Shown: piece after piece, positions 2,471 to 7,145 of the stretch
How the letters are laid out: every line of letters starts with the position of its first letter
Position numbering within the stretch: position 1 is the stretch's first letter
Assembly: GCF_020906515.1 (NCBI RefSeq)
Contig: NC_085853.1
Coordinates: 744,001-808,000, forward strand
From: Vanrija pseudolonga
Lineage: Eukaryota > Basidiomycota > Tremellomycetes > Trichosporonales > Trichosporonaceae
Direction of reading: 5' to 3'
DNA: 64,000 nucleotides
Position numbers and translations under genes: made by a program
The notes under the pieces: model-generated
The model's input: the letters and a program-made list of their open reading frames with translations, nothing else
Databases searched by the model: none
Told to the model about the DNA's origin: nothing

Positions 2471-5098
2471 ATGCAGCCCTACATCCCTCCCTCCTCCCCG
2501 GCGTTCGAGAAGGAGTCGCACATTGGTAATGAGCCTGCATCTATCCAGGCTCGTATTGCCGGTGATGCGGTCGTTCGAGACTACGAGAACAAGCAGCACC
2601 AGTAAGTAGTCCCCGTGGCGGCTCCCGTCCTGTCACGCGTCTAACTAGTCAGGCTCTCCGAGGCTATCGATGCGACCAAGCACCTCGTCGCCGACCTGAA
2701 GAACTTCAACACCGAGGAGTGGAAGATTCGTTACCCCCACTTCAACCAGCCTTCTGACACGGCAACACCCGGTGTGGGCAGACGTGCTCTGACTTTCGCC
2801 GATGAGCCCTCATCGTCGACGAATGTCATTGTCAACTCGGTGTCCAACGAGAGACGACAGATGAAGCGTTCGGTCACCCTCCTGGACGAGTCATCCTTGA
2901 CTGAGGAGCCTGCCAGTGTCGCGTCCTCGGAGTCTGAAGACTTCTCCATCCTTCAGCTGGACCTCAACCTTGGCGCCACACGGCACGCCAAGGCTCTGAT
3001 CTCTAACCTCGAACGCTCGTCCATCTCGGCTCTGCTGGACAACCGTCTGTCAGCAGCATTGGACCATCTCAACCTCCTGCACGCTCGTATCCATGACGCC
3101 CACTCGCGAGTTTTGGTTACTGGCGACTTGAACGCTGGCAAGTCGACCTTCGTCAATGCTCTTCTCCGCCACTCCGAGGTTATGCCTACGGACCAGCAGC
3201 CTTTGACCACTCGCTTTGTCGAGGTTGTCAGTGCGCGCGAAAACAATGATGTCGAGGAAGTTCACGTCCTCGAGCCAAACGTCAAGTACGATCCAGCCGA
3301 CCCTTCGACCCACACAGTCGTTCCGCTGGACCAGCTTGAGAAGCTTGCTACCGACATTGACAACGACCCCTCAGCGCCGCCTCTCCGAGTGTTCCTCCGC
3401 GAGAACAGCATTGGCAGCTCCAACCCATCAATCCTGCACAATGGTGTTGTGGACATTTCGCTGATTGACGCTCCTGGCCTCAACCGCGACTCGATCAAGA
3501 CAACCGCCAACTTTGCTCGCCAGGAGGAGATTGATGTTGTCGTGTTTGTCGTCTCAGCGGCCAACCACTTTACGCTTTCGGCCAAGGAGTTCATCTGGCA
3601 GGCTGGCCACGAGAAGGCCCACCTCTTCATCGTTGTCAACCGCTTCGACCAGATCAAGGACAAGGAGCGCTGCCGCCGTGCTGTCATGGAGCAGATCAAG
3701 CAATTGAGCCCTGACACCTATGCCGACGCCAAGGACCTCGCCCACTTCGTCGACTCTGCCAAGGTTGCTATGGGTTTCGAGGACAGTGACGAAGACGACA
3801 GCGCCGACGACATGGACGCCGCGTTCTCTTACCTGGAGCAGTCCCTCCGCTCCTTTGTCCTCGTCAACCGCGCCAAGTCCAAGCTTGGCCCGGCCCAGAA
3901 CTACACTACGCACCTACTGGCGGACGTCGAGCTCCTCGCCTCGGCCAATTCCGTGGTCGCCAACCAGGAGCGCGATGTCGCTCTCAAGGAGATCTCGCGT
4001 GTCAAGCCCGAGCTCGACCGCATGAAGCGCGGCAAGGACTCTCTCGAGGACGGTCTTGTCACGGAGGAGGAATCTGTCACTGCTTCGGCCACCACCAATG
4101 CCAAGCAATCCCTCCGTGCCGCCCTCGACCGCGTTGGTCGCGGCGAGCTGGCGGAAGGTGTGCCTGTGCCCGTGTATCCTGGCCTCCTCGGAGCATGGGA
4201 CTATGCTCACGAGGTTCGCCGTGCTCTCCTTTCGTCCCTCGACATTGCTGTCCGCTCGGTCGAGGACTCGTCTCGCGACATCACCACTGGTGCTGTCAAG
4301 ACCATTGGTGGCCTCGGTGACAAGCACCTCCCCGCTGATGTAGAGCGCTCGAAGCGAGTCTTCAACGCCAACGCCATGTTCTTCAACCACTCCAATGCCA
4401 AGGGCCGCCGTGTCTCTGGCCGCCAGTATGTTGGCCTTGGATTGGCTGGCAACTCTGCTCTTTCAAACGTTTCCGTTTCCGACATCTTCGACTTGCAATA
4501 CCACCTGTTCCTCACCGACTCGGTCCCGTCAGAGTCCCCCAAGCTCTCACCACTCAAGGACCTGATCCCCGCTTCCATGAACAACGAAGTGTCGGGCATC
4601 GGTGCGGCGTCTCTGGCTCTCGGTGCCTTCTCCATGGCCGGCGGCAAGACGGTTGCTCTCCGCTCGCTCCTCGAGGGCATTGTTCAACTTTCAGAGCTCG
4701 CTTCCAACCCCGTTGTCCGCAAGTGGGCTGGCCCTGCCTTCGGTGTGATTGTCGCCGGTGCCATCGCCTACGTGGTCTACGAGCTGCCCCGCACTATCCC
4801 CCGCAACGTTGGGCGTCACATTCGTGCCCAGCTCCTCGTCACCTCTGGCGGACAAGAAGAGGACGAGACTCCGTTCTGCGAGGCCGAATCCGAGCGCATC
4901 GGCCGCGAGGTGCGCAAAGTCATGCGCCTCGCTGCTTGGGACCTTCGTGAGCGCTTCCGTGCTGCTTTGGAGGTTCGCAACGAGATTGTCCGCCAAAGCG
5001 AGGAGACTGCCGAGCGAGCAACTCGTGCGCTGGAGTGGTTCACCGAGGTCGAACAACGCGTGGACTTGATCCGCGGGCAGTTGGGCCTGAAGCTCTAG
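2471..5098 (+). CDS. FZO1: Mitofusin, outer mitochondrial membrane fusion GTPase
   Basis: Dynamin-family GTPase that fuses mitochondrial outer membranes. Two exons, 2471-2601 and 2653-5098, flank a 51-nt intron with GTAAGT donor and a CTAAC branch site. The 858-residue product matches the length of yeast Fzo1 (855). GTPase motifs are visible: G1 GDLNAGKST (about residue 201), G3 DAPG (about 316) and G4 NRFD (about 373). The ELMPTDQQP-type switch region (here VMPTDQQPLTTRF) is characteristic of fungal mitofusins. A hydrophobic segment near residues 735-760 (FGVIVAGAIAYVVYEL) is the membrane anchor, flanked by predicted coiled coils. The start at 2471 is the first ATG in frame and follows a CCATC context. 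Family assignment is firm. Confidence 0.95.
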
Positions 5099-5283: not shown

Positions 5284-7145
5284 CTACTTGGTGAAAATGC
5301 TGACAACATCCTCGTCCTGGACGTGGTGGGTCAAACCGACCTTTTGAGGCTGGGGGTTGAACTTGCTCGACTTGCCCCAAACGAGAGCATACTTGAAGTG
5401 CGAAGCCAGGCTGCGGTGGATACCGTGACAAACCGTCTCGACGGTAGCGCCTGCCCTCAAGCAGATGGGGTCGCCGAGGTCTGGCTGCTCTCCACGCTTC
5501 TTTGTGTAGACCCTGGGGAAGAAGAAGATTAGCATCTGGGAAGCGCGGGTAGCTGTGACGACTCACTTCACCAGGCCCAGCTCCTGCAGAAGGTTAGCAA
5601 GTCTGTCATGCTTTTGCACTCTTGCTACTCACCTTCCAAACAGCCTCCAGGAGCCAGTCAATGCCGAGATCAAGCTCACAGCTGATCATGACTGTCCGTC
5701 CATCGCCCTCGCGTGCCATGCGATCCAGCGTCTCCATGGAGACGCCATCGATCTTGTTGATAACAGTCAGGGATGGGATGTACTTGCGTGTTCCGAGCAG
5801 GACGTCGATAAACTCGTCAGTGGTAATCTGGCAACATTAGTAACAATGTTACGCTACAGGCTGCAACAGCCGTCACGCACGTCCTCGCGGATCATCACGT
5901 CGCAGTTGTGGACTGTAAAGCTGTCAGACTCGCAAACCTGGTCCCAGCTCACTCCTGTACGTCTGCAGAATCGAGCGAATCGTGCGCTCGTCGATCTTGG
6001 TCAACTTGACAGTGTTGTTGATCGTGATCTTTGAGAGTGGGTCAGGCTGCGCACTCTTACTCGCCACCTACACCACCGGCAGTCTTCTGCTTGAACACGA
6101 CATCTGGGGGTGCGGTGTTGAGACGGATTCCAACGGCCTCGAGTTCTGCGTAAAGCATCGCCTTCTGCTCGTCCGATTTGGTGGCGTCAACTGCCCAGGT
6201 CAGCCATTGAAGAACGTTCAGCACCAGGGCGCTATCTCACGCACTCATAATGAGAATCAGGTCGGCCGTCTTGGCGACTGAGACGACCTGTCGTCCACGT
6301 CCGCGACCTGTTGTGTAAGTTTGTCACTTCAAGACCAGGCAGACAGTCGCCTCACCCTTGGCGGCATCCTGCACAATACCGGGCAGATCGAGAAGCTGAA
6401 TGCGGGCTCCCTCATACTCAAGAACACCGGGAATAGCCTACGCCGCGTTCAGTTTACCGTCACACTCGCGACTCACTGTGAGCGTCGTGAACTCGTACGC
6501 TCCGACCACCGACTCGGTCTTGGTCGTCTTGGACAGAAGAGTCGACTTGCCGACGGAGGGGAATCCGATCAAACACACACGGGCATCTGGCAACCGGCGT
6601 CAGTCTCACCCACATGGTCAATGAGACCACTCACCGCCCGACTTCATAACATCAAAGCCTTCTCCCTTGGGGCCCTTCTTCTCGGGCTCCAGCAGCTGAG
6701 CGCGGTACTTGGCCACTGGAATGGTCAGCCCTGTCCGTCTGGTGCATCTCGCGCCTCACATTTTGCCTAGCATTGCAAACGCATGGTTAGTAACACTTCC
6801 GCGAGCAAGTCGAGAGCCCCTCTCACTTTGAGAAGACCCAGGTGATACTCCGTCGCTGCCAGTGTCAGCTTTGACACCCTGGAGCCGCACGAGCTTCTTA
6901 CCCTTGCTGCAGTTGTTGAAGAGAGAAGCCATGTCAGTAAAAGCAAGCTCCGTTGGGATCGACGCGTATCACGAACTTCTTCTGCGCTGCACGATGCCGT
7001 TAGCAAAGGACAGCTTATGGGGCATGTCTCCAACTTACTCCTCGCCATCTCCTCTGCGGGGCAACTGATCAGCTTCTGCCATTGCTGGGTCTGCCTCATG
7101 GCCATACGCACTCTCGATATCCTCAATCTTTTGAAGGACACCCAT
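5284..7145 (-). CDS. RBG2: DRG2-type developmentally regulated GTPase (Rbg2), 16 exons with microexons
   Basis: TRAFAC GTPase that with a DFRP partner (Gir2 in yeast) acts on ribosomes during translation. Exons run from 7145 down: 7112-7145, 7039-7053 (15 nt), 6977-6986 (10 nt), 6902-6906 (5 nt), 6827-6855, 6760-6766 (7 nt), 6635-6715, 6477-6586, 6356-6437, 6245-6307, 6072-6190, 5953-6028, 5881-5912, 5633-5827, 5567-5583 (17 nt), 5284-5512. They sum to 1,104 nt, a 367-residue protein (human DRG2 364, yeast Rbg2 368). The joined N-terminus reads [20 protein letters not shown], the near-invariant DRG2 signature; G1 is [10 protein letters not shown]3 DLPG, and a C-terminal TGS domain follows. 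All introns are GT-AG and 40-70 nt. Tail-to-tail with FZO1 (185 bp apart). Confidence 0.93.

What the first reader, a model, noticed from the sequence alone, without database searches (positions are those of the whole stretch)
6716..7145. Four microexons (15, 10, 5 and 7 nt) at the 5' end of DRG2
The first 100 coding bases of this GTPase gene are spread over six exons, four of them 15, 10, 5 and 7 nt (7039-7053, 6977-6986, 6902-6906, 6760-6766). Every intron has GT-AG ends and 44-70 nt length, and only this combination rebuilds the near-invariant DRG2 signature [20 protein letters not shown]; total length is divisible by three. A 5-nt exon between two introns is at the lower limit of what spliceosomes define and ordinary gene finders will miss it, giving a wrong or absent N-terminus in automatic annotation.
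Basis: partly seen in the sequence, partly recalled or inferred. Interest (0 to 1): 0.75.

Follow-up and report, generated by a model that had tools for sequence, protein, structure and literature searches.

The report
Tiny-exon cluster starting a DRG2 gene
In the yeast Vanrija pseudolonga, the start of a conserved ribosome-associated GTPase gene is cut into six small coding pieces, one only five bases long, and the public annotation of this very gene skips five of them; similar tiny exons are already known in fungi, so it is a clear new example and not a new kind of thing.

Summary
Minus strand 7145-5284 encodes a complete 367-aa DRG2/Rbg2 GTPase in 16 exons. Its first 100 coding bases lie in exons of 34, 15, 10, 5, 29 and 7 nt, as described; a 17-nt exon (5583-5567) was missed. 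Spliced alignment to four homologues recovers all 15 introns; 0 of 500 shuffles match the N-terminal score. DRG1 of the same genome carries the joined exon sequence uninterrupted, 88% over 57 nt. Annotation faults in relatives suggest that introns 1 and 2 are shared across Agaricomycotina and intron 4 within Tremellomycetes; 9 of 28 faulty records were not explained this way, and intron 3, which creates the 5-nt exon, has one ambiguous relative behind it. The 5-nt exon holds the codon of Lys-21, hydroxylated by JMJD7 in human DRG2. No transcript of this gene was found. Exons of 1 nt are published in Cryptococcus, Fusarium and Arabidopsis, so this is a new member of a known kind.

The parts
7112..7145 (-). 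DRG2 exon 1, coding part from ATG, 34 nt, ends phase 1 in codon 12
   Evidence: spliced alignments
7054..7111 (-). intron 1, 58 nt, GTGCGT..GCAG, branch-point-like CTGAT 15 nt from the 3' end
7039..7053 (-). exon 2, microexon of 15 nt (rest of K12, E M A R, first base of T17)
   Evidence: exon-2-skip faults in relatives
6987..7038 (-). intron 2, 52 nt, GTAAGT..GCAG, CTAAC 13 nt from the 3' end
6977..6986 (-). exon 3, microexon of 10 nt (rest of T17, Q K, first two bases of N20)
6907..6976 (-). intron 3, 70 nt, weak donor GTTCGT, CTGAC 27 nt from the 3' end
6902..6906 (-). exon 4, microexon of 5 nt, CAAGG: last base of N20, whole codon of K21, first base of A22
   Evidence: K21 numbering
6856..6901 (-). 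intron 4, 46 nt, GTAAGA..GCAG, CTGAC 9 nt from the 3' end
   Evidence: donor at the same codon phase read through in Cutaneotrichosporon annotations
6827..6855 (-). exon 5, 29 nt ([10 protein letters not shown])
6767..6826 (-). intron 5, 60 nt, GTGAGA..CTAG, CTAAC 20 nt from the 3' end
6760..6766 (-). exon 6, microexon of 7 nt (A K, first base of L34)
6716..6759 (-). intron 6, 44 nt, GTGAGG..CCAG, CTGAC 9 nt from the 3' end
6635..6715 (-). exon 7, 81 nt; the public annotation joins exon 1 straight to this exon
5633..6586 (-). exons 8-14 (110, 82, 63, 119, 76, 32, 195 nt) with short GT-AG introns: G domain and its C-terminal extension
   Evidence: this place is garbled in V. humicola, V. albida and Kwoniella bestiolae annotations
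5284..5512 (-). exon 16, 229 nt with stop codon (most of the TGS domain)

Best explanation
This is the intact DRG2/RBG2 gene of Vanrija pseudolonga. Its N-terminal helix-turn-helix segment is encoded by a run of constitutive microexons. Each of the 15 introns is short (39-70 nt) with its own donor and acceptor, so each can be recognised as a unit across the intron (intron definition), and exon length hardly matters. The introns on either side of a 5- or 7-nt exon probably have to be removed one after the other, because U1 on the downstream donor and U2AF/U2 on the upstream acceptor would overlap on so short an exon. Introns 1 and 2 look old within Agaricomycotina and intron 4 at least within Tremellomycetes. 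The 5-nt exon most simply arose when a further intron (intron 3) split an older 15-nt exon into 10 + 5. Gene finders that require longer exons skip the run, which happens to stay in frame (30 or 66 nt), so the wrong proteins look plausible. Shown: the sequence, frame, splice signals, homology and the annotation error. Inferred: inclusion in the mRNA, order of intron removal, intron age and the origin of the 5-nt exon.
For: Full model without stop, 367 aa. Four homologues (Kwoniella, Cryptococcus, Dioszegia, Infundibulicybe) each give all 15 introns and no other, at two intron penalties. Shuffle controls. CTRAY branch-point motif 9-27 nt from the acceptor in 6 of 6 cluster introns against 461 of 4271 background AG-ended segments. 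The joined exons match a contiguous stretch of DRG1 in the same genome at 88% over 57 nt across four junctions. P0005 equals the model minus exons 2-6 and lies on a contig of the same length, 2,724,646. Twenty faulty records (one of them P0005 itself) fit the same intron positions and phases. Unnamed 367-aa ORFs on contigs of 1.2-1.4 kb (P0007, P0008, P0021), probably spliced transcripts of other species, carry the corresponding motif. In C. neoformans exons down to 1 bp were found in an RNA-seq-based annotation, with median intron 56 nt (PMC3990503 section 9).
Against: No transcript of this species was seen among the 120 best listed; both lists are capped and the database is clustered at 90% identity. 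The donors of introns 3 and 4, on either side of the 5-nt exon, are weak: GTTCGT and GTAAGA rank in the top 9.0% and 14.2% of all window GTs, against 1.0-4.0% for 11 of the other 13 introns (intron 5: 6.0%, intron 11: 9.3%; introns 7-15 were in the training set). Intron 3 is supported in relatives only by one ambiguous record (C. depauperatus). Nine of 28 faulty records in the list do not show one of the predicted patterns. Genomic DNA of relatives could not be read, so conservation rests on annotated proteins.
Confidence: 0.93

Rival explanations
1. The microexons are a regulated cassette: besides the full-length mRNA, an in-frame skip of exons 2-4 (30 nt) or 2-6 (66 nt) makes a DRG2 with a damaged N-terminal helix-turn-helix and no Lys-21.
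For: Contiguous skips {2}, {3,4}, {5,6}, {2,3,4}, {3-6} and {2-6} stay in frame (6 of 15 contiguous skips). The 2-6 product is exactly the public protein P0005. The 2-4 product has the same shape as annotations in five other records.
Against: Gene finders choose in-frame joins by construction, so the annotations are no evidence of real isoforms. The skip in P0005 needs a 396-nt intron where all introns of the full model are 39-70 nt. In yeast Rbg1 deletion of the HTH abrogates activity (PMC3510508, passages seen).
Confidence: 0.05
2. Exon 4 is not an exon: introns 3 and 4 form one nested (twin) intron and the 5 nt are removed.
For: The two introns lie 5 nt apart and intron 3 has a weak donor.
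Against: Without the 5 nt the frame shifts and a stop follows at residue 53. The 5 nt supply Lys-21, conserved in yeast Rbg2 and Rbg1, human DRG2 and DRG1 of the same genome.
Confidence: 0.01
3. The N-terminus is really different, as in the deposited annotation (exon 1 joined to exon 7), and the apparent microexons are chance.
For: It is the deposited protein.
Against: Shuffles (0 of 500), branch-point motifs in 6 of 6 introns, and the uninterrupted DRG1 copy of the same peptide.
Confidence: 0.01

Closest known systems
Very small exons of Cryptococcus neoformans var. grubii (Janbon et al. 2014, PMC3990503, section 9 read, otherwise passages)
   Same: Same class (Tremellomycetes), intron-rich genes with short introns (median 56 nt), exons down to 1 bp, hard for automatic annotation.
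   Different: That section reports such exons in general; the present case is a run of four in one conserved gene, with the annotation error of that gene demonstrated.
Conserved microexon clusters of land plants (Yu et al. 2022, PMC8831610, abstract, outline and passages seen)
   Same: 1-15-nt exons in conserved proteins, widely misannotated; flanking introns reported to be removed one after the other.
   Different: Plants, RNA-seq based; here a fungus and no reads.
1-nt exon of Fusarium CYP621A (PMC12940212, passages seen) and of Arabidopsis APC11 (PMC4674806, abstract, introduction and outline seen)
   Same: In Fusarium, as here, the tiny exon is deduced from a conserved motif that cannot be encoded otherwise.
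   Different: Even smaller (1 nt) and with experimental or transcript support.
Xlr2 microexon switch of Trichoderma virens (PMC11121469, passages seen)
   Same: Microexon in a fungal gene.
   Different: A regulated inclusion switch; no sign of regulation was tested here.

Membership tests
DRG2/Rbg2 GTPase | OBG-type G domain, C-terminal extension of that domain and TGS domain, full length | tested here: met
   PF01926, PF16897 and PF02824 all above cut-off; best solved chain is yeast Rbg2 (7nrc), ahead of Rbg1
DRG2/Rbg2 GTPase | N-terminal motif E-K-E-M-A-R-T-Q-K-N-K-A-T-E-Y-H-L-G in the HTH | tested here: met
   only when the microexons are included
Constitutive microexon (internal coding exon of at most 15 nt) | Size and canonical GT-AG introns on both sides | tested here: met
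   15, 10, 5 and 7 nt
Constitutive microexon (internal coding exon of at most 15 nt) | Needed for frame or conserved residues | tested here: met
   loss of exon 3, 4 or 6 alone shifts the frame; loss of exon 2 keeps the frame but removes conserved residues
Constitutive microexon (internal coding exon of at most 15 nt) | Present in the mature mRNA | not testable with these tools
   no reads held; no transcript fragment of the species among the listed hits
Constitutive microexon (internal coding exon of at most 15 nt) | Intron positions conserved in relatives | tested here: inconclusive
   indirect support for introns 1, 2 and 4 (19 of 28 faulty records in the list fit, 9 do not); intron 3 rests on one ambiguous record
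Twin (nested) intron | Sequence between the two splice units is not coding | tested here: not met
   the 5 nt encode Lys-21 and keep the frame

The most novel reading that the evidence does not exclude
The microexon run is a conserved in-frame cassette of Agaricomycotina (blocks 15, 10+5 and 29+7 nt) through which splicing can remove the Lys-21 hydroxylation site or much of the first helix pair of DRG2, tuning a ribosome-associated GTPase.
Probability: 0.05. Interest if true: 0.7.

Novelty: new member of a known kind. Interest (0 to 1): 0.4.

Why it matters
It is a worked case of how a conserved protein segment can be split into pieces as short as 5 nt, and of how that corrupts databases: none of the 8 Trichosporonales DRG2 records in the listing has the intact N-terminal motif (the listing is capped and clustered at 90% identity, so a correct record may be hidden in another cluster). 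It gives a ready test gene for microexon-aware annotation and for ordered intron removal in fungi. The 5-nt exon carries the codon for the lysine whose human counterpart (DRG2 K21) is hydroxylated by JMJD7 (PMC9001643, passages seen), and the deposited V. pseudolonga protein lacks that residue.

Tried and rejected
A transcript of this species: a search with words from residues 1-62 only (best 120 of 2660 listed) and a search with the first 89 residues for short fragments (best 120 of 2202 listed) showed no Vanrija sequence; the best-scoring fragment was 82% identical and the highest identity listed was 86%. A retrocopy of the spliced gene in the own genome: the joined-exon query hit only the gene itself and DRG1. 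Origin of intron 1 by local duplication of exon 2: a 16-nt, 13-match resemblance scores as well in 38 of 2000 shuffles, too weak to use. Whether the organism has a JMJD7-like hydroxylase: five Cupin_8 matches at about four places, none assigned. The nested-intron reading was rejected because the 5 nt are coding. A genome-wide census of microexons was not done: the genome gives no file and no gene set was at hand, so how unusual the cluster is within this genome is unknown. Papers: searches for microexon + Trichosporon and DRG2 + microexon returned 0 papers each, so I found no print report of these exons in DRG2; the library does not hold most subscription journals.

Full report
WHAT IS THERE. 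The stretch lies at the 5' end of a minus-strand gene. Reading 7145 down to 5284 with 15 GT-AG introns gives 1104 nt and 367 residues without a stop. Pfam finds the G domain, its C-terminal extension and the TGS domain, and the nearest solved protein is yeast Rbg2 (7nrc, E 3.4e-125), ahead of Rbg1. The gene is therefore DRG2/RBG2. A search of the own genome with this protein finds, besides the window's own exons, DRG1 on contig C1 and one weak match (33% identity) to another GTPase, so no second DRG2 at that sensitivity.

WHICH ORGANISM. The contig C5 that holds the window is 2,724,646 bases long. The database protein P0005, 'Developmentally-regulated GTP-binding protein 2 [Vanrija pseudolonga]', comes from a contig of the same length. 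Its 345 residues equal, letter for letter, the translation of this gene without exons 2-6 (sequence). V. pseudolonga belongs to the Trichosporonales in the Tremellomycetes.

IS THE CHAIN REAL OR CHANCE. I wrote a spliced alignment that allows any GT-AG intron of 30-200 nt and has no minimum exon length. Forbidding each of the six introns in turn gives 223, 239, 243, 237, 236 and 236. Over the whole gene four homologues at two intron penalties give all 15 model introns and none besides. When the 396 nt between exon 1 and exon 7 are shuffled with dinucleotides kept, 0 of 500 reach 257 (mean 167.1, SD 12.1, max 193). Shuffling only the block round one exon gives 257 or more in 0 of 400 for exons 2, 3, 5 and 6, but in 14 of 400 for the 5-nt exon; my reading is that with a cheap intron penalty a single-intron solution with other residues can tie. 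A candidate for exactly the needed residues arises in 18 of 20000 shuffles for exon 4 and 5 of 20000 for exon 6, and in 0 of 20000 for either when a CTRAY motif in both introns and a donor consensus are also asked for. The real sequence has exactly one candidate in each case.

SPLICE SIGNALS. All six cluster introns have CTRAY 9-27 nt before the 3' end; in AG-ended 60-mers of the window's minus strand a CTRAY within 7-40 nt occurs in 461 of 4271. If independent, 6 of 6 has a probability near 1.6e-6 (my arithmetic). Two of the other nine introns of the gene (8 and 9) and two of five DRG1 introns lack the motif in that range, so it is common but not universal. Donors were scored with a matrix from 14 introns outside the cluster (introns 7-15 and five of DRG1). 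Cluster donors rank in the top 1.4, 2.5, 9.0, 14.2, 6.0 and 4.0% of all window GTs. The two around the 5-nt exon are the weakest of the cluster, which counts somewhat against efficient splicing there; intron 11, beside long exons, is as weak as intron 3 (9.3%).

AN INTERNAL CONTROL. The joined exons of DRG2, used as a DNA query in the own genome, match DRG1 on contig C1 at 88% over 57 nt, query positions 17-73, which spans the joins 1/2, 2/3, 3/4 and 4/5. In the DRG1 model this peptide lies in one 53-nt exon. The same genome thus holds an uninterrupted copy of the sequence that the microexons rebuild. DRG1 itself has a 23-nt exon.

RELATIVES. Genomic DNA of other fungi was not available, but mistakes in annotated proteins tell where introns lie. 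Of the 120 proteins listed (of 7981 matches, clustered at 90% identity), 24 bear names that I place in the Tremellomycetes, partly by look-up and otherwise from knowledge of the genera: 8 of 24 have the intact N-terminal motif, and 0 of the 8 from Trichosporonales. Of the other 96, 79 have it; by eye, 5 of the 17 failures (P0037, P0068, P0076, P0088, P0104) are plain substitutions. That leaves 28 faulty records. Of these, 19 show a pattern that the Vanrija exon borders and phases predict, as does one more (P0137), 20 in all, one of them this gene's own record. The patterns were written down after seeing the sequences, so this is a description and not a blind test. The other 9 (P0016, P0058, P0067, P0099, P0108, P0110, P0117, P0118, P0120) I did not explain.

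The patterns. V. humicola, C. oleaginosum and Tremellales sp. Uapishka_1 read IE-T-TEYHL (skip of exons 2-4, hybrid codon A|CN). Two Saitozyma records read IE-P-TEYHL, which fits the same skip if residue 12 is Gln there. Naganishia albida reads IE-T-QKNK, and Schizophyllum, Trametopsis and Sanghuangporus read IE-A-QKNK (skip of exon 2, with K12 or E12). Reads into a donor appear at intron 1 in V. albida and C. depauperatus, at intron 2 in Heliocybe, Pleurotus and Ganoderma, and at intron 4 in Apiotrichum and four Cutaneotrichosporon records. Introns 1 and 2 thus appear to be shared across Agaricomycotina, and intron 4 by Trichosporonales and Tremellales. Intron 3, which splits a 15-nt unit into 10 + 5, is supported only by C. 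depauperatus (DKATEYHL, which fits GA|C AAG G), and that is ambiguous. The place of the 17-nt exon 15 is also garbled in V. humicola, V. albida and K. bestiolae.

HOW IT WORKS. Short introns that each carry all their signals can be recognised one by one, and then a 5-nt exon is simply what is left between two of them. U1 at the downstream donor and U2AF at the upstream acceptor would collide on it (general knowledge of the spliceosome), so the two introns probably leave in turn. In plants reads indicate that introns flanking microexons go one after the other, more often the downstream one first (PMC8831610, passage seen). That the same holds here is inference. Loss of exon 3, 4, 5 or 6 alone shifts the frame, and retention of any one of the 15 introns brings a stop before the normal end. 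Skips of {2}, {3,4}, {5,6}, {2,3,4}, {3-6} and {2-6} stay in frame, which is why wrong gene models look sound.

WHAT THE SEGMENT DOES. In yeast Rbg1 residues 1-44 form a helix-turn-helix domain; its deletion abrogates Rbg1 activity, though not binding to Tma46 or the polysome distribution (PMC3510508, passages seen). The 5-nt exon supplies the whole codon of Lys-21; numbering is identical in human DRG2. Human DRG2 K21 is hydroxylated by JMJD7 (PMC9001643, passages seen). Whether Vanrija modifies it is unknown; the genome has five Cupin_8 matches, unassigned.

NOVELTY. C. neoformans, same class, has exons as small as 1 bp and a median intron of 56 nt (PMC3990503 section 9). One-nucleotide exons are reported with transcript or experimental support in Fusarium and Arabidopsis (passages and abstract). 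Searches for microexon with Trichosporon and for DRG2 with microexon found no paper. So it is a new and well-marked member of a known kind; the clustering, the Lys-21 codon and the demonstrated database error make it worth a note.

Noticed in passing
window 5567-5583 (-): A fifth very small exon (17 nt) in the same gene; annotations of V. humicola, V. albida and Kwoniella bestiolae are garbled at this place.
   Followed up: yes
window about 3107-3640 (+), in a gene from about 2472 to 5097: Convergent neighbour with a GTPase match and an 817-aa open frame, looks like a mitofusin-type dynamin GTPase by eye (recalled, not tested); by eye it ends under 200 nt from the DRG2 stop.
   Followed up: no
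L009 (DRG1 paralogue, contig C1): DRG1 has a 23-nt exon and a 426-nt intron rich in CCCACC repeats, longer than the other introns seen here.
   Followed up: partly
window 7090-7105 (-), intron 1: 16-nt resemblance (13 of 16) between intron 1 and the joined exons 2-3; 38 of 2000 shuffles do as well, so probably chance.
   Followed up: partly
P0005 (public V. pseudolonga DRG2): The deposited protein lacks 22 residues, including Lys-21.
   Followed up: yes
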